DNA of 64,000 bases from Bacteroides fragilis NCTC 9343 (lineage in GTDB: Bacteria > Bacteroidota > Bacteroidia > Bacteroidales > Bacteroidaceae): assembly GCF_000025985.1 (NCBI RefSeq), contig NC_003228.3, positions 1,178,001 through 1,242,000 of the forward strand, read 5' to 3'. Positions within the stretch are counted from its first letter, which is position 1. Every line of letters begins with the position of its first letter. The notes below the pieces were generated by a model, which was not told where the DNA came from, made no database searches, and worked only from the letters and a program-made list of their open reading frames with translations. Positions 4,518 to 23,254 of this stretch are shown here, in pieces. A program made the position numbers and the translations under genes.

Positions 4518-4721
4518 AAGGTAGAGGTTACTGCTTATTTAATTAAAGAAACAGGTCATCCACCACCTGCTGCAGGACGGTTCTTTTGCATTATTAGATG
4601 GATTGTTAACCAAATAGAGTCAATGAATAAATTGGAGGAGGTAAAGGGCTGAATATCTATCTTTATTTCTAAGTTTATTCATTGATCCCGCAGTAATCTA
4701 TTCTCTCTTCATATATACAAA

Positions 4722-4787
4722 TAAAAAAAAGGCTATCCTCCCGGACAGCCAATCTTTATTAACCTTAAATCTAATACCATGAAAAAC
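4722..4787 (-). ncRNA. Candidate small RNA ending in an intrinsic terminator
   Basis: On the minus strand a perfect -7 box (TATCTTTGC, 4,793-4,801) is followed about 45 bases later by a strong terminator: stem GGCTGTCC / GGATAGCC (one G-U pair), loop GGGA, then eight Ts (4,750-4,722). The short region between has no open frame. This predicts an independent transcript of about 65 nt. The hairpin would also stop read-through from the rlmI-like gene ending at 4,900. Whether the element is a true small RNA or only a promoter remnant plus terminator cannot be told from sequence alone. Confidence 0.5.
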
Positions 4788-4792
4788 ACAGT

Positions 4793-17780: not shown

Positions 17781-20000
17781 TTGAGGTGCAATATATTAAT
17801 ATGGTGTTTTTGGTTATTCTCGCTCTGTTTTGTTCAAAAGGGAGTGGCTAACGTTGTTCTTGATCCTCAGACCAATCGTCCCATCTCTGCCGATTCTATT
17901 TTGAATAATGTGATGACTTTCGCTCCTTTTTACGAAAAGTTAGTGACCGACTATCGGGCCGATCTATATATAAAAGGTACGATGGACATCAAACGAAAGA
18001 ATTTTATTCTCCGGTATGTACCTTCCATGTTCCGTCTTCAAAAAGGTGTACGGCAGTATATGGTGGAGACGTATAGTGATCTGCATTTTACAGCTCCTAA
18101 TATCTATGACCAGAAGGTGAAAGCTTCTATGGGCACTGTGCATAATAGCCGGGGAGTACCGGGGATGCTCGAGTATTTCAATATCAATCTTTATTCTTCA
18201 ACGCTGCTTTACGACCGATTGCTTTCGCCTTTGGCCAAAAACGGGCGGAAATATTATAAGTATCTGATCGATTCCATAATGGGTGGGACGGACAACCGAC
18301 AATATAAGATACGGTTTATCCCCAGAAGTAAGAGTGATCAGTTGGTGGGTGGATATATGATTGTGAGTAGTGACGTGTGGAGTGTCCGCGAAATACGTTT
18401 TTCCGGCAGGTCGGAACTGCTATTGTTCAGTTGCCTGATAAAAATGGGTAGTGTAGGAAAGGATGATGAGTTTCTTCCGGTCAGCTATAATGTCGAAGGA
18501 CAGTTTAATTTTTTGGGTAACCGTATTAATGGAGTTTATGTGGCATCGCTCAACTATCACGATATTGTGCTTGAAGAAAATCAGAATAAATGGAAAGAGA
18601 AGGTGAGGGCGAGAATAAAAGGAAAAAGTAAATATGATCTTTCAGACTCTTATAACTTGCAATGCGAGACTACCTCTTTCCATACGGATAGTGCTTATTT
18701 TGAAACATTGAGGCCTATTCCTTTGTCGGAGGCTGAGCGCAGACTATACAAAGAAGATGCGTTGCGTAAAGATACCATTCAACGCAACATCAAACCAAAG
18801 AGTAAGAGTCAGGTGTTTTGGGGACAGGTGGGAGACGTACTGATCAGTGACTATAAATTGAACCTCTCCAATCTGGGAAGCGTGAAGTGCTCACCACTTA
18901 TCAACCCTTTCTTGTTGAGTTATAGCGGGAGCAATGGGCTTTCCTACAGGCAATCGTTTAAATATAACCGACTTTTTAAGCATGATAGGCTATTGCGTGT
19001 GGTACCTAAGTTGGGCTACAACTTTACACGAAAAGAATTCTATTGGTCTGTCAATACCGAATTTAATTACCTGCCCGAGAAGATGGGAGCTGTTCACATT
19101 GACTTTGGTAACGGCAACCGGATTTACAGTAGCGATGTGCTTGATGATTTGAAAGCCATACCCGACAGTGTATTTGATTTTAATCAGATTCATTTGGACT
19201 ACTTTTACGATTTATATTTTAATTTCCGACACAGTATCGAGATTATTAATGGATTAGAGTTAAGTGTAGGCTTATCTACCCATAGGCGAAAGGCGGTAAA
19301 GTCCTCTAAGTTGGTTCCACTGACAAAGAGTCGGGAGACACTCAATGAAGATATCCAGAACAAAATCAGGAATACCTATTTGAGTTTTGCCCCTCGGGTT
19401 CGGTTGGAGTGGACCCCTTGTTTATACTATTACATGAACGGACACCGTAAGATTAATCTCCGTTCTAAGTATCCCACTTTTTCGATAGACTGGGAGAGGG
19501 GAATCAAGGGGGTATTTGGCAGTACCGGACAATATGAACGTTTGGAGTTTGATTTGCAGCATCATATACCCTTGGGACTGATGCGTAATATCTATTATCG
19601 TTTTGGATTTGGTATGTTTACCAATCAGAAAGAAATGTATTTTGTCGACTTTAATAACTTTACCCGAAGTAATCTTCCTGAAGGTTGGAATGACGAAATC
19701 GGAGGAGTATTTCAGCTTCTCGACCGTCGTTGGTATAATGCTTCACGGAAATATATACGGGGACATTTTACTTATGAAGCTCCTTTCCTATTATTAAAAC
19801 ATCTGATTAAATACACACGTTATGTACAGAACGAGCGGTTGTATGCGAGTATATTGTCAGTACCCCATCTTCAGCCGTATGTGGAATTGGGATATGGAAT
19901 CGGTACTCACATCTTTGATTTTGGCGTTTTTGTAGGTAGTGAGAACTGGAAGTATACCGAGGTCGGCTGCAAGTTTACGTTCGAGCTGTTTAACCGCTAA
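17781..20000 (+). CDS. DUF5686 outer-membrane beta-barrel protein, TTG start
   Basis: A 739-residue protein. The frame has a stop just upstream of TTG at 17,781 and no early ATG, so TTG is the likely start; an AAGGAG sits 8 bases before it. That start gives a signal peptide (ILIWCFWLFSLCF then a cut after VA). The N-terminal half (SADSILNNVMTFAPFYEKLV, YIKGTMDIKRKNFILRYVPS) matches DUF5686 family proteins; the C-terminal half has alternating aromatic strands ending in FELFNR, typical of an outer-membrane barrel. Molecular role is unknown. It is followed by the retron. Confidence 0.75.
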   Translation: MRCNILIWCFWLFSLCFVQKGVANVVLDPQTNRPISADSILNNVMTFAPFYEKLVTDYRADLYIKGTMDIKRKNFILRYVPSMFRLQKGVRQYMVETYSDLHFTAPNIYDQKVKASMGTVHNSRGVPGMLEYFNINLYSSTLLYDRLLSPLAKNGRKYYKYLIDSIMGGTDNRQYKIRFIPRSKSDQLVGGYMIVSSDVWSVREIRFSGRSELLLFSCLIKMGSVGKDDEFLPVSYNVEGQFNFLGNRINGVYVASLNYHDIVLEENQNKWKEKVRARIKGKSKYDLSDSYNLQCETTSFHTDSAYFETLRPIPLSEAERRLYKEDALRKDTIQRNIKPKSKSQVFWGQVGDVLISDYKLNLSNLGSVKCSPLINPFLLSYSGSNGLSYRQSFKYNRLFKHDRLLRVVPKLGYNFTRKEFYWSVNTEFNYLPEKMGAVHIDFGNGNRIYSSDVLDDLKAIPDSVFDFNQIHLDYFYDLYFNFRHSIEIINGLELSVGLSTHRRKAVKSSKLVPLTKSRETLNEDIQNKIRNTYLSFAPRVRLEWTPCLYYYMNGHRKINLRSKYPTFSIDWERGIKGVFGSTGQYERLEFDLQHHIPLGLMRNIYYRFGFGMFTNQKEMYFVDFNNFTRSNLPEGWNDEIGGVFQLLDRRWYNASRKYIRGHFTYEAPFLLLKHLIKYTRYVQNERLYASILSVPHLQPYVELGYGIGTHIFDFGVFVGSENWKYTEVGCKFTFELFNR

Positions 20001-20016
20001 CTTTATTCTTACTATT

Positions 20017-20049
20017 TTTGTTAGCAGAGAAGAATATTTCTACCTTTGC
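20017..20049 (+). promoter_or_regulatory. Promoter of the retron RNA
   Basis: TTTG at 20,017-20,020 and TACCTTTGC at 20,041-20,049 match the Bacteroides -33 and -7 boxes with a 20-base spacer. Transcription would start within a few bases of the first arm of the retron RNA at 20,054, as expected for a dedicated promoter. Confidence 0.75.
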
Positions 20050-20053
20050 GGTC

Positions 20054-20172
20054 AAGAGGATGAGATAAAGATTTAGCAAAAAAGAGGTGCAGTCGCCTCA
20101 TGAACTCAGGTTCTTTCTGGTTTCTTTATTAAGATACTCATAATAAAGAAAAGTAAATACTCTCATCCTCTT
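20054..20172 (+). ncRNA. Retron ncRNA (msr-msd) with a1/a2 arms
   Basis: The ends are complementary: a1 AAGAGGATGAGA (20,054-20,065) with a2 TCTCATCCTCTT (20,161-20,172), 12 perfect pairs. After a small internal loop ATTTA (20,071-20,075) pairs with TAAAT (20,154-20,158). The next base, G20,076 in TTTAGC, is in the position of the branching guanosine of known retrons (Retron-Eco1 has CCTTAGC paired with TAAGG). Inside lie a msr-like hairpin GAGGTG-CAGT-CGCCTC (20,084-20,099) and a msd-like hairpin with 11 perfect pairs, TTTCTTTATTA / TAATAAAGAAA, and a 9-base loop (20,121-20,151). The reverse transcriptase gene starts 34 bases downstream. The predicted cDNA would be short, at most about 50 nt. 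Confidence 0.85.
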
Positions 20173-20206
20173 CTTTTATTGCTTCTATATATTATAATGT
20201 ATAAGG

Positions 20207-21319
20207 ATGGAACTACTTTTGGGTATTGTGATTGTCGTTACCTGTTGGATGGTTGTTCGTATTATTCGTTCAAGCAAAAATCAGGAAGGATATAAAAGGT
20301 GGAGGGCCGGTAACTATGCCAGTGAAAATCCTTATGCCAAAGAAAAAGCAAGTGGTCCGCTTTCCCAAGGTCTTTTTAGTAAGAGAGTCAGAACTACCGG
20401 TGTGAGGCGGTTCGATGACGGAGCTATCAGGTGGTGTGCCAATCTGCTGGCAACCGAAGAATCCAGATTGAGGGAAGTGTTGGATTATATACCGCGCCAA
20501 TATACCTGTTTTCATGTTCGGAAAAGAAGTGGCGGATTTCGTTATATTTCGGCTCCCGCAGGTGATTTTCGTTCCATGCAACAAACTATCTATCACCGTA
20601 TTTTATTGTTAGCTAACATACATCCCGCTGTTACCGGATTTTGTCCGGGAAAGTCCGTATCCGATAATGCACGGGTGCATTTGGGGCGAAAGAATGTATT
20701 AAAAGTAGATCTTCACGACTTTTTTCCTTCCATACGTTCACCCAGGGTGAGAGCAGCTTTTAGGGAGATGGGGTACTCACGTCCCATCGCGAAAGTTTTG
20801 GCGGAACTTTGTTGTCTCAGATGTTGTCTTCCGCAGGGAGCGCCTACCAGTCCGGCTCTCAGTAATATTATAGCCTATCCGATGGATAAAAAAATGATGG
20901 CGTTGGCCGGTGAATACGGGTTGGTTTATACGAGATATGCCGATGATCTTACCTTTTCGGGTGATTATTTGCCGAAAGATGAAGTTTTGGTACGAATCCA
21001 CAGGATTATTCGGGAAGAAGGTTTCACGATGAATGTCAAAAAGACCCGCTTCTTGTCTGAACATAAACGTAAGATTATTACGGGAGTATCGGTTAGCTCA
21101 GGCAAGAAGATGACTCTGCCTAAAGTGAAGAAGCGGGAGATTCGTAAGAATGTGCACTACGTCCTGACAAAAGGGTTGGTCGGACATCAGGAACATATTG
21201 GTTCTACCGATCCCGTTTACTTGAAGCGTTTACTGGGCAGTTTGTGTTACTGGCGTTCCATAGAACCGGACAACCGATATGTATCCGATTCCATCACAGC
21301 TTTGAAGAGATTAATGTGA
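20207..21319 (+). CDS. Retron reverse transcriptase with N-terminal membrane segment
   Basis: A 370-residue reverse transcriptase. Retron-specific marks are present: NARVH (NAxxH, residues 154-158) in region X and ITGVSV (VTG-like, 291-293) in region Y. The polymerase core has VDLHDFF (Asp168), QGAPTSPALSN (210-220) and YADD (244-247), all intact. Before the core is an extension: residues 1-20 are a hydrophobic helix (LLLGIVIVVTCWMVV) followed by basic residues, then a linker of about 45 residues. The enzyme would therefore sit on the inner membrane. It should reverse-transcribe the upstream RNA into branched msDNA. No separate effector gene adjoins: the neighbours are DUF5686 and rpsA. Confidence 0.93.
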   Translation: MELLLGIVIVVTCWMVVRIIRSSKNQEGYKRWRAGNYASENPYAKEKASGPLSQGLFSKRVRTTGVRRFDDGAIRWCANLLATEESRLREVLDYIPRQYTCFHVRKRSGGFRYISAPAGDFRSMQQTIYHRILLLANIHPAVTGFCPGKSVSDNARVHLGRKNVLKVDLHDFFPSIRSPRVRAAFREMGYSRPIAKVLAELCCLRCCLPQGAPTSPALSNIIAYPMDKKMMALAGEYGLVYTRYADDLTFSGDYLPKDEVLVRIHRIIREEGFTMNVKKTRFLSEHKRKIITGVSVSSGKKMTLPKVKKREIRKNVHYVLTKGLVGHQEHIGSTDPVYLKRLLGSLCYWRSIEPDNRYVSDSITALKRLM

Positions 21320-21386
21320 GGTATGTCGATTGTAGTTCCTTTTGATATTTTTTTTGCTATTCTTTTCTAATTCAAGAAAATAGTTC

Positions 21387-21396
21387 TATCTTTGCG
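21387..21396 (+). promoter_or_regulatory. -7 box for rpsA
   Basis: TATCTTTGCG matches TAnnTTTGC, 64 bases upstream of the rpsA ATG. It separates the ribosomal gene from the retron transcript. Confidence 0.7.
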
Positions 21397-21460
21397 CCCG
21401 ATTTATATAATCAATATAATGTCTTATTTAATTAAAGAATTACTAAACAATTAATTATTA

Positions 21461-23254
21461 ATGGAAAACTTAAAGAACGTTGCTCCTATTGAAGACTTCA
21501 ACTGGGATGCGTATGAAAACGGCGAGAGCTTCGCTGGTGCCAGCCACGAAGAACTCGAAAAAGCTTACGACGGTACGCTTAACAAAGTAAATGACCGTGA
21601 GGTTGTTGACGGAACTGTAATCGCAATGAACAAACGTGAAGTTGTTGTGAACATCGGTTACAAATCAGACGGTATCATTCCTTTGAATGAATTCCGCTAC
21701 AATCCTGATTTGAAAGTAGGTGATACTGTTGAAGTATACATCGAAAATCAGGAAGACAAAAAAGGACAGTTGGTTCTGTCACACAGAAAAGCTCGCGCTA
21801 CTCGCTCTTGGGATCGCGTTAATGCTGCTCTGGAAAACGAAGAAATTATCAAGGGTTACATCAAGTGTCGCACTAAGGGTGGTATGATCGTTGACGTATT
21901 CGGTATCGAAGCATTCTTGCCGGGTTCTCAGATCGACGTGAAACCGATCCGTGACTATGATGTATTTGTTGGCAAAACAATGGAATTCAAAGTGGTTAAA
22001 ATCAACCAGGAATTCAAAAACGTGGTTGTTTCTCACAAAGCTCTTATCGAAGCTGAACTGGAACAACAGAAGAAAGAAATTATCGGTAAGCTCGAAAAAG
22101 GACAAGTTCTTGAAGGAACCGTTAAGAATATCACATCTTATGGTGTATTCATCGACCTGGGTGGCGTAGACGGATTGATCCACATCACTGACCTGTCTTG
22201 GGGCCGCGTAAGCGATCCGAAAGAAGTGGTTGAACTGGATCAGAAGTTGAACGTTGTTATCCTCGACTTCGATGACGAGAAGAAACGTATCGCTTTGGGT
22301 CTGAAACAACTGACTCCGCACCCATGGGATGCTTTGGATCCGAACCTTCAGGTAGGTGACAAAGTGAAAGGTAAAGTAGTGGTTATGGCTGACTACGGTG
22401 CATTCATCGAAATCGCTCCGGGTGTTGAAGGTCTGATCCACGTTTCAGAAATGTCATGGTCACAGCATTTGCGTTCTGCACAAGACTTCATGAAAGTCGG
22501 TGACGAAGTAGAAGCTGTAGTTCTGACTTTGGATCGCGAAGAACGTAAGATGTCTTTGGGTATCAAACAACTGAAACAAGATCCATGGGAAACTATCGAA
22601 GAGAAGTATCCTGTAGGTTCTAAGCATACTGCTAAGGTTCGTAATTTCACTAACTTCGGTGTATTCGTAGAAATCGAAGAAGGTGTTGACGGACTGATCC
22701 ACATCTCTGACCTTTCTTGGACTAAGAAGGTTAAACACCCGTCAGAATTTACTCAGATTGGTGCTGATATCGAAGTTCAGGTATTGGAAATCGACAAAGA
22801 AAACCGTCGTTTGAGCCTTGGTCACAAACAACTTGAAGAGAATCCTTGGGATGTATTCGAAACAGTATTTACTGTAGGTTCTGTACACGAAGGTACAATT
22901 ATCGAAATGCTGGATAAAGGCGCTGTAGTTGCTCTTCCTTACGGTGTTGAAGGTTTCGCTACTCCGAAACATCTCGTTAAAGAAGACGGTTCACAGGCTC
23001 AGATGGACGAGAAACTGGAATTCAAAGTGATTGAGTTCAATAAAGATGCTAAGAGAATCATCTTGTCTCACAGCCGCATTTTCGAAGATGTTGCTAAGGC
23101 AGAAGAAAGAGCTGAAAAGAAGGCTGCTTCTAACGCAAAGAAATCTTCTAAGAGAGAAGAAACTCCTGCTATCCAGAACCAGGCTGCTTCTACAACTCTG
23201 GGTGATATCGATGCTTTGGCTGCTCTGAAAGAACAGTTGGAAGGTAAGAAGTAA
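21461..23254 (+). CDS. rpsA: 30S ribosomal protein S1
   Basis: 597 residues made of repeated S1 RNA-binding domains; at least five clear repeats carry the pattern G-x-V-x-x-x-x-x-YGVFIDLGGVDGLIHITDLSW or close variants, with earlier degenerate copies at the N-terminus. The C-terminal tail (about 555-597) is Lys/Ala/Glu-rich. S1 binds mRNA leaders on the 30S subunit, which is especially important in Bacteroides where Shine-Dalgarno pairing is weak. Codon use is strongly biased as expected for a highly expressed gene. It has its own promoter and terminator. Confidence 0.97.
   Translation: MENLKNVAPIEDFNWDAYENGESFAGASHEELEKAYDGTLNKVNDREVVDGTVIAMNKREVVVNIGYKSDGIIPLNEFRYNPDLKVGDTVEVYIENQEDKKGQLVLSHRKARATRSWDRVNAALENEEIIKGYIKCRTKGGMIVDVFGIEAFLPGSQIDVKPIRDYDVFVGKTMEFKVVKINQEFKNVVVSHKALIEAELEQQKKEIIGKLEKGQVLEGTVKNITSYGVFIDLGGVDGLIHITDLSWGRVSDPKEVVELDQKLNVVILDFDDEKKRIALGLKQLTPHPWDALDPNLQVGDKVKGKVVVMADYGAFIEIAPGVEGLIHVSEMSWSQHLRSAQDFMKVGDEVEAVVLTLDREERKMSLGIKQLKQDPWETIEEKYPVGSKHTAKVRNFTNFGVFVEIEEGVDGLIHISDLSWTKKVKHPSEFTQIGADIEVQVLEIDKENRRLSLGHKQLEENPWDVFETVFTVGSVHEGTIIEMLDKGAVVALPYGVEGFATPKHLVKEDGSQAQMDEKLEFKVIEFNKDAKRIILSHSRIFEDVAKAEERAEKKAASNAKKSSKREETPAIQNQAASTTLGDIDALAALKEQLEGKK

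What the first reader, a model, noticed from the sequence alone, without database searches (positions are those of the whole stretch)
20041..21319. Complete retron core: promoter, msr-msd RNA and reverse transcriptase
Seen directly: -7 box TACCTTTGC; 4 bases later the arm AAGAGGATGAGA (20,054-20,065), matched perfectly by TCTCATCCTCTT (20,161-20,172). Then ATTTA pairs with TAAAT, and G20,076 follows at once in TTTAGC. Hairpins fill the interior, one with 11 perfect pairs. The adjacent reverse transcriptase has NARVH, YADD and ITG. Established: retrons have a1/a2 complementary ends, a branching guanosine just after a1 in a UAGC-like context, and reverse transcriptases with NAxxH and VTG motifs. 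Inference: the locus makes msDNA with a 2'-5' branch at G20,076 and a cDNA of at most about 50 nt.
Basis: partly seen in the sequence, partly recalled or inferred. Interest (0 to 1): 0.94.

Follow-up and report, generated by a model that had tools for sequence, protein, structure and literature searches.

The report
Membrane-anchored retron with helicase-nuclease partner
A Bacteroides chromosome carries a retron, a reverse transcriptase gene beside the RNA that it likely copies into a very short DNA hairpin, but this enzyme is predicted to sit in the cell membrane, the partner genes usual for its type were not found, and in some related bacteria it lies tail-to-tail with a predicted helicase-nuclease gene that likely is its partner, which points to a new kind of retron.

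Summary
The finding is a real retron. An RNA model built from the window and relatives hits exactly the 23 of 149 genus genomes that hold the RT and 4 of 4 RT loci it was not trained on. The a1/a2 helix is kept by changes on both sides at 5 of 12 pairs.

(2) It descends from type III-A retrons, but the PRTase and winged-helix profiles of its sister find nothing in 26 of 26 genomes. (3) A ~1,950-aa DUF4011/helicase/nuclease gene (PDC-S37, Hhe-like) lies tail-to-tail with the RT in 12 Bacteroides genomes (one spot) and 4 Dysgonomonas genomes (four spots). All 23 Bacteroides retron genomes have it, against 20 of 126 others. In the window's genome it lies 2.8 Mb away.

Likely a new retron type. 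msDNA, membrane location and the partnership are untested.

The parts
20017..20048 (+). Promoter: TTTG (20,017-20,020) and -7 box TACCTTTG (20,041-20,048), spacing 20 bp
   Evidence: Sequence. TAnnTTTG ends 7-9 bp upstream of the conserved a1 core in 25 of 27 loci, window included; a TTTG 19-22 bp further up in 7 of the 27. Consensus from a passage of PMC7366714.
20054..20065 (+). Arm a1 of the retron RNA
   Evidence: Perfect complement of a2; helix kept with changes on both sides at 5 of 12 pairs.
20071..20078 (+). ATTTAGCA: TTTA pairs with TAAA at 20,154-20,157; predicted branch guanosine G20,076
   Evidence: TTTAGCA invariant in 26 of 26. Priming G in a conserved AGC is the retron rule (passage of PMC6868368). 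Branch chemistry untested.
20084..20099 (+). msr hairpin GAGGTG-CAGT-CGCCTC
   Evidence: 100% of cells paired in 25 distinct rows; A-U to G-C change on both sides in 2 rows.
20121..20153 (+). msd hairpin (11 perfect pairs) and likely cDNA template, about 33 nt
   Evidence: Stem of 9-23 pairs (G-U allowed) ending within 3 nt of AGTAAA in 26 of 26, with arm sequences that differ between clades; single-letter shuffles match it in 0-9 of 300. The cDNA itself is inferred.
20161..20172 (+). Arm a2
   Evidence: As a1.
20207..21319 (+). Retron reverse transcriptase, 370 aa (NARVH, YADD, ITG)
20210..20284 (+). Codons 2-26: predicted membrane helix (inner-membrane anchor, N-out/C-in)
   Evidence: AlphaFold helix 2-26, mean pLDDT 93 over residues 1-20. 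Hydrophobic segment in 27 of 27 clade loci against 3 of 106 other retron-like RTs and in 216 of 218 listed database relatives. More net positive charge after than before it in 198 of 216.
20285..20413 (+). Codons 27-69: mostly disordered tether between anchor and RT domain
   Evidence: pLDDT under 50 over 25-45 and 47-65; higher dN than the RT domain in the pairs compared.

Best explanation
This is a retron, an RNA with conserved a1/a2 arms and branch-site context beside its reverse transcriptase, whose enzyme is predicted to be anchored in the inner membrane, likely makes a hairpin DNA of about 33 nt there, and would hold a predicted helicase-nuclease partner (encoded elsewhere in this genome, and right beside the retron in some relatives) in check until phage attack. 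Steps shown: RNA and RT form one unit conserved across Bacteroides, Tannerella and Dysgonomonas. The RT carries an N-terminal hydrophobic segment that its sister type III-A RT lacks. The PRTase and winged-helix profiles that fit the sister locus find nothing in these genomes. A DUF4011/SF1-helicase/MTES_1575-nuclease gene lies tail-to-tail with the RT in 12 Bacteroides genomes (one spot) and 4 Dysgonomonas genomes (four spots), and 2 kb behind it in a fifth Dysgonomonas. All 23 Bacteroides retron genomes encode that gene. Steps inferred: the RNA is transcribed from the promoter just before a1. The RT primes from G20,076 and copies the msd hairpin up to the second msr stem. The RT-msDNA complex sits on the inner face of the membrane. 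A phage activity that binds, cuts or modifies the small DNA hairpin frees or switches on the helicase-nuclease, which attacks DNA. In the window's lineage the partner would act in trans from a gene about 2.8 Mb away.
For: RNA: the covariance model hits 23 of 149 genus genomes, exactly those with the near-full-length RT, and 4 of 393 order genomes, exactly the four whose RT scores above 450 bits. Nearly all of these were in its training set. It also hits 4 of 4 RT loci not used to build it, E 7.7e-17 to 6.8e-23, with 21 of 23 pairs formed in each. Covariation. msd stems.
RT.
Anchor.
Descent: the anchored RTs form one branch (SH-aLRT 99) whose sister in the tree (support 91), L131, is a canonical type III-A locus PRTase-WH-ncRNA-RT without the helix. 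The model also finds L131's RNA at E 0.0019.
No type III partner: PDLC02932 (PRTase_III-A) and PDLC02975 (WH_III-A), the profiles that fit L131 best, in 0 of 26 anchored-retron genomes, 1 of 1 positive control.
Helicase-nuclease: 23 of 23 Bacteroides genomes with the retron against 20 of 126 without (Fisher 1.5e-15); 21 of 21 against 2 of 20 among genomes of 4.4 Mb or more. On a DUF5686 tree, 5 independent pairs that differ in the retron: helicase the same way in 4.8 on average, the other way in 0. Dysgonomonas 5 of 6 against 3 of 19. Gaps between the stop codons 1, 3, 4 and 6 bp in four Dysgonomonas and 41 bp in B. faecis.
Against: No msDNA, membrane or phage experiment is available. In the window the helicase gene is not adjacent, and its copy in this genome (52% identical to the B. 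faecis one) lies outside the helicase subclade that holds all 8 linked copies sampled, of 17. That subclade also holds 5 copies from genomes without the retron. Two anchored-retron genomes lack the gene: Dysgonomonas G539 and Tannerella G498. In G086 it is split over two reading frames with a stop. The gene occurs without the retron in 20 of 126 Bacteroides genomes; of 15 independent pairs that differ in the helicase, 10 do not differ in the retron. The sign test cannot fall below 0.0625 with 5 pairs. In the theta group both genes lie in one variable spot, so joint loss there is one event. Known retron effectors are usually encoded in the same operon, not convergently (recalled). Convergence with a defence gene in a shared spot can also be accidental.
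Confidence: 0.45

Rival explanations
1. The retron and the DUF4011 helicase-nuclease are two independent defence genes that share insertion spots and hosts; the anchored retron works with another, unidentified partner in trans.
For: The helicase stands without an RT-like ORF on the flanks examined in 7 no-retron loci. The interval behind DUF5686 is a variable spot that takes other cargo. G539 and G498 hold the retron without the helicase.
Against: In five Dysgonomonas genomes the pair lies in five different neighbourhoods with the same orientation, four of them with gaps of 1-6 bp. 23 of 23 Bacteroides retron genomes hold the helicase although it is unlinked in 11 of them.
Confidence: 0.25
2. 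The anchored retron is self-contained: the membrane helix of the RT is the output, for instance RT-msDNA clustering or release that depolarises the membrane.
For: The helix is kept in 216 of 218 listed relatives while its sequence drifts. No gene is shared next to the RT among B. fragilis, the cellulosilyticus group, UBA939 and Tannerella.
Against: A single short helix with a positively charged flank looks like an anchor. A commentary states that an effector beyond the RT is essential for retron defence (passage of PMC13158370).
Confidence: 0.12
3. An orphan retron: after loss of the type III partner genes the RNA-RT unit persists as a DNA-making element with a housekeeping, regulatory or no function.
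For: RNA plus RT alone between DUF5686 and rpsA in the window. Retron-Eco5 (Ec107) is an intergenic precedent (passages of PMC6868368).
Against: Purifying selection on the RT domain, dN/dS 0.08-0.10 in the fragilis trio. Between the window and strain S82, RT dS is 0.89 against 0.02 for rpsA, which looks like allele exchange, common in defence genes; against strain Q1F2 the RT dS (0.99) is no higher than that of most neighbours. Helicase association.
Confidence: 0.15
4. An ordinary type III-A retron whose PRTase/WH genes were missed.
For: Best PADLOC profile is RT_III-A.
Against: PDLC02932 and PDLC02975 find nothing in 26 of 26 genomes while the positive control rings. Neighbours within 6 kb listed in 16 related loci show no gene that stays with the RT when the locus changes.
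Confidence: 0.02
5. A chance inverted repeat upstream of a non-retron RT.
For: 12-bp stems occur in 2 of 500 shuffles.
Against: Covariation and out-of-sample hits.
Confidence: 0.01

Closest known systems
Type III-A retrons (PADLOC RT_III-A, PRTase_III-A, WH_III-A; e.g. L131 in a Bacteroidales genome, L202 Rhizobium, L203 Acinetobacter)
   Same: RT family and position in the tree (L131). L131's RNA, with AGC and a similar msr hairpin, is found by the model directly before the RT at E 0.0019. Gene order PRTase-WH-RT in all three.
   Different: No match to the best-fitting PRTase or WH profile in 26 of 26 anchored-retron genomes. RT has a membrane helix and tether; often a convergent helicase-nuclease instead. 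The model did not find the RNA in L202 or L203 at E up to 1.
Retron-Eco5 (Ec107)
   Same: Retron as an intergenic insertion without a mobile element nearby (passages of PMC6868368).
   Different: The PADLOC Ec107-like profile scores 244.5 against 335.6 bits for III-A. Ec107 RT has YCDD (same passages), here YADD. No anchor is described in the passages seen.
Retron-Eco1 (Ec86), type II-A (type recalled)
   Different: Ec86 uses a ribosyltransferase effector that hydrolyses NAD(P)+ (passage of PMC12948488). The match begins at residue 71 of this RT, so residues 1-70 are extra.
Hhe / PDC-S37 defence candidates (DUF4011-helicase-nuclease)
   Same: The neighbour gene in two relatives scanned (B. faecis, Dysgonomonas G454) matches PDC-S37 (1,240 and 1,233 bits) and Hhe (569 and 555 bits) in PADLOC and carries DUF4011, AAA_11/12, MTES_1575 nuclease and DUF3320 domains.
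   Different: Known as single-gene defence candidates (recalled), not as retron partners. Of 13 papers listed only PMC10250203 holds both 'retron' and 'DUF4011', as separate items (passages).

Membership tests
Retron | RT with NAxxH (region X), YADD and VTG (region Y) | tested here: met
   NARVH, YADD, ITG. A V-to-I variant occurs in validated Vc81 (passage of PMC6868368). In 218 listed relatives: NAxxH 201, YADD 216, TG motif in region Y 216.
Retron | a1/a2 inverted repeat enclosing msr and msd | tested here: met
   97.3% of cells paired, 5 of 12 pairs with changes on both sides.
Retron | Priming guanosine in a conserved AGC next to a1 | tested here: met
   TTTAGCA invariant in 26 of 26, with the TTTA/TAAA helix beside it. 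This is position only.
Retron | Synthesis of branched msDNA | not testable with these tools
   Needs nucleic acid from cells.
Retron | Effector gene or RT-fused effector domain at the locus | tested here: not met
   Window neighbours are DUF5686 and rpsA; no effector domain found in the RT. In some relatives a candidate partner stands beside the RT. Definitions of retron as RT plus ncRNA do not require it.
Type III-A retron | RT closest to the type III-A profiles | tested here: met
   335.6 bits, best other type 253.6. Canonical members score 476.7 and 392.5.
Type III-A retron | PRTase and winged-helix genes | tested here: not met
   PDLC02932 and PDLC02975 in 0 of 26 anchored-retron genomes; positive control G508 rings. 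Other PRTase/WH subprofiles were not searched.
Ec107-like retron | RT best matched by the Ec107-like profile | tested here: not met
   244.5 bits against 335.6 for RT_III-A.
Type IV (2TM) retron | Separate two-helix membrane effector gene (recalled) | tested here: not met
   No such gene beside the RT in the window; the helix is part of the RT itself.
New type: anchored retron plus DUF4011 helicase-nuclease | The two genes are linked or co-occur | tested here: met
   Linked in 12 of 23 Bacteroides and 5 of 6 Dysgonomonas anchored-retron genomes (one of the five at 2 kb); present in 23 of 23, 5 of 6 and 0 of 1 (Tannerella). Not linked in the window.
New type: anchored retron plus DUF4011 helicase-nuclease | The two proteins act together | not testable with these tools
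   Needs pull-down and phage assays.

The most novel reading that the evidence does not exclude
A new retron type: a membrane-tethered reverse transcriptase displays a very small hairpin msDNA at the inner membrane, where phage DNA enters, and uses it to gate a DUF4011 helicase-nuclease. The pair travels as a tail-to-tail two-gene module, and in B. fragilis it has been split into two loci that still work together.
Probability: 0.38. Interest if true: 0.86.

Novelty: new variant of a known kind. Interest (0 to 1): 0.7.

Why it matters
Retrons are understood as complexes in which RT-msDNA holds a neighbouring effector. A clade whose RT is predicted to be fixed in the membrane, that has dropped its ancestral effector genes and that keeps company with a helicase-nuclease would give a new effector class and a new cellular location for msDNA sensing. 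It sits in common gut Bacteroides, and its type III ancestry can be compared directly with L131. It makes testable what triggers a retron at the membrane. The short, compact RNA, not matched by any Rfam 15 family, may also be a useful small template for making DNA in gut bacteria.

Tried and rejected
Chance stem: rejected on conservation and covariation, although 2 of 500 shuffles do make a 12-bp stem.

Known RNA family: none above threshold; the weak hits (E 3.9-9.1) are unrelated families.

Ordinary type III-A with PRTase/WH: rejected genome-wide with one profile each.

Plasmid or phage carriage: the best plasmid hit is a chromosome-like fragment with rpsA, ftsK and trxB. The best phage hit is an unannotated 11-kb faecal contig, not analysed further.

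'No partner at all': I held this view until. It was revised when the Dysgonomonas flanks showed the same helicase as the theta group.

Genome size as the cause of the helicase link: 21 of 21 against 2 of 20 among genomes of 4.4 Mb or more speaks against it. The third figure (order level) was labelled and counted slightly off and is not used.

A defence-hotspot reading of the DUF5686-rpsA spot: only partly borne out, as 7 of 9 proteins tested from loci downstream of DUF5686 had no PADLOC match.

Structure library: the match rows mostly span residues 70-370, so they say nothing about the anchor.

Rows left out: L008 (close to L007 and L009) was left out of A1 and A2. The tree took 18 of 27 anchored RTs and 93 of 106 others (by length and duplication). 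4 of the 139 genomes with a DUF5686 match (G053, G063, G128, G135, partial) and the 10 without were left out of the tree. The helicase tree took 28 copies. One search's text pattern for the RNA was mis-written and found nothing; one search replaced it. Genome-wide RNA searches used stricter filters that can lose weak matches. The model also gives weak antisense hits on its own loci (E 0.0023, 0.00089), not counted.
Full report
1. What was checked. The promoter, both arms, the TTTAGC context, the hairpins and the RT motifs are all at the coordinates given. In dinucleotide shuffles of 20,001-20,206 a 12-bp perfect stem at that spacing appeared in 2 of 500, and 20,050-20,206 folded better than all but 1 of 200 shuffles. 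Alone this would be suggestive only.

2. The RNA is conserved. A genus search found 34 of 149 genomes with some RT match and 23 (the window's included) with a near-full-length relative, 56-81% identical where not its own. Named relatives include two B. fragilis strains, B. faecis, B. cellulosilyticus, B. xylanisolvens, B. finegoldii and Tannerella forsythia. The same RNA lies upstream in each of the 27 loci looked at. In an alignment of 26, TTTAGCA and AGTAAA are invariant. The a1/a2 helix is paired in 97.3% of cells and has changes on both sides at 5 of 12 pairs. Over the whole structure given, 7 pairs and 24 cells change on both sides, which 0 of 500 shuffles reach; slid versions give at most 3 pairs. 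The number of further pair types was reached by 143 of 500 shuffles, so that one measure is not informative. A stem of 9-23 pairs ends within 3 nt of AGTAAA in 26 of 26, with different arm sequences in different clades; single-letter shuffles match it in 0-9 of 300. TAnnTTTG lies 7-9 bp before the a1 core in 25 of 27 loci, so the transcript should begin at a1. That is inference, supported by the promoter consensus in a passage of PMC7366714.

3. Prediction outside the training set. A covariance model from the 26 sequences found the RNA in 23 of 149 genus genomes, exactly those with the near-full-length RT, and in 4 of 393 order genomes, exactly the four with an RT above 450 bits. Those sets nearly coincide with the training set. 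The real test is four Dysgonomonas loci found later: all four carry the RNA just before the RT (E 7.7e-17 to 6.8e-23), each with 21 of 23 pairs on a model-fitted alignment. No Rfam 15 family matches.

5. Descent and lost partners. On a tree of 111 RTs (quick method) the 18 anchored RTs are one side of a branch (SH-aLRT 99), next to L131 (91). L131 is a type III-A locus, PRTase_III-A, WH_III-A, RNA, RT, without the helix. The covariance model finds its RNA at E 0.0019. Plasmid relatives L202 and L203 have the same gene order, but the model does not find their RNA. In 26 genomes with the anchored RT, PDLC02932 (PRTase_III-A) and PDLC02975 (WH_III-A) were found in none; G508, the positive control, rings. 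So this clade keeps RT and RNA, lacks the type III partners and has an anchor. A passage of PMC12548924 describes type III by PRTase plus a DNA-binding protein.

6. The neighbourhood. In the window the unit sits between DUF5686 (17,781-20,000) and rpsA (21,461-23,254). In 8 of 30 DUF5686 loci examined the site is empty, with 109-260 bp between the two genes. Neighbours differ elsewhere: PTR2 and a SecDF-like gene in the cellulosilyticus group, PAP2 and MatE in UBA939, a beta-galactosidase and DJ-1 in T. forsythia. RNA and RT therefore appear to move as one unit of about 1.3 kb.

7. The candidate partner. In the theta group the next gene, on the other strand, encodes a ~1,950-aa protein with DUF4011, SF1-helicase, MTES_1575 nuclease and DUF3320 domains, best matched by PADLOC PDC-S37 and then Hhe. 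It is linked to the RT in 12 of 23 Bacteroides genomes, within 100 bp in 11 and at 360 bp in G012. In Dysgonomonas a homologue (63% identical in G454) stands convergent to the RT in 5 of 6 anchored-retron genomes. The five flanks differ; one gene family recurs, upstream in one and downstream in another. The gaps between stop codons are 1, 3, 4 and 6 bp in four of them and 2.0 kb, with two small genes between, in the fifth; in B. faecis the gap is 41 bp. By genome, 23 of 23 Bacteroides with the retron have this gene against 20 of 126 without. In 11 of the 23 it is unlinked, and in the window's genome it lies at 3,979,555-3,985,395 of contig C1. On a DUF5686 tree of 135 genomes, 5 independent pairs that differ in the retron give 4.8 concordant and 0 discordant on average, two-sided p 0.0625, the lowest that 5 pairs can give; of 15 pairs that differ in the helicase, 5 go the same way and 10 do not differ in the retron. 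Dysgonomonas: 5 of 6 against 3 of 19, Fisher p 0.0055.

8. Against the partnership. Tannerella G498 and Dysgonomonas G539 have the retron without the gene. In G086 the gene is split. The 8 linked copies sampled (of 17) sit in one subclade of 13 that also holds 5 from genomes without the retron, while the copies of B. fragilis and of the cellulosilyticus group lie outside it. The gene stands alone in other genomes. I put the partnership at about two in five.

9. Selection and exchange. Within the fragilis trio the RT has dN/dS 0.12-0.14 and its RT domain 0.08-0.10. Between the window and B. fragilis S82 nucleotide identity is 97-100% just downstream, 86-96% in the 2 kb upstream and 72-73% inside the first half of the RT. 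dS is 0.89 for RT, 0.38 for DUF5686 and 0.02 for rpsA. This looks like local exchange of retron alleles, as expected of defence genes (inference). Against strain Q1F2 there is no such peak: RT dS 0.99, DUF5686 1.23.

10. Literature. In the held library none of the papers listed or 117 shows in title, abstract start or the passages I opened an anchored retron RT or a retron paired with a DUF4011 protein. I read passages only, of PMC4244168, PMC5704556, PMC6868368, PMC7366714, PMC8867640, PMC10250203, PMC12262390, PMC12548924, PMC12948488 and PMC13158370; a search inside PMC10994844 returned no passage. The 2020 classification of retron types is not held, so I cannot say whether it lists this clade under another label. 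NCBI already names such proteins 'retron St85 family RNA-directed DNA polymerase'. The identity of the window's genome as B. fragilis NCTC 9343 is recalled from its contig sizes and comes from no call.

11. Verdict. A real retron, ordinary in its core, unusual in its anchor and its lost partners, with a recurrent helicase-nuclease neighbour in relatives: a new variant, and likely a new type.

Noticed in passing
window 20,001-21,460 and relatives (L190-L201, L207-L214): The interval behind DUF5686 is a variable spot across Bacteroides: empty, retron only, retron plus helicase, helicase plus a Fic-like gene without retron (L212), or other cargo of up to about 11 kb before rpsA (L208).
   Followed up: partly
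window 20,000-21,250 against L032: A local drop in identity (to 72-73%) between close B. fragilis strains, centred on the retron, with near-identical sequence downstream: likely allele exchange. Not seen against L031.
   Followed up: partly
window 4,721-4,789, minus strand: Rfam BTncRNA_FopS, 78.5 bits, the only Rfam family above threshold in the window.
   Followed up: no
L371, L373, L374, L376, L377: The Dysgonomonas msd is long (template about 71-73 nt in the two measured), and it holds CTAAATC, complementary to the GATTTAG that precedes the branch site; a possible alternative pairing.
   Followed up: no
G000:C1:2,467,791-2,468,495: A second, distant retron-like RT (296-aa open frame, about 30% identical) in the window's genome, and similar hits in other genomes of the genus.
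   Followed up: no
L157 (NZ_OY725931.1): A record labelled plasmid carries rpsA, ftsK, trxB and the retron locus, so it looks like a chromosomal fragment.
   Followed up: partly
G000:C1:3,979,555-3,985,395 (L234): The window genome's helicase-nuclease gene overlaps convergently with an ion-channel gene (Ion_trans); the same gene family stands there in all three B. fragilis-group loci.
   Followed up: no
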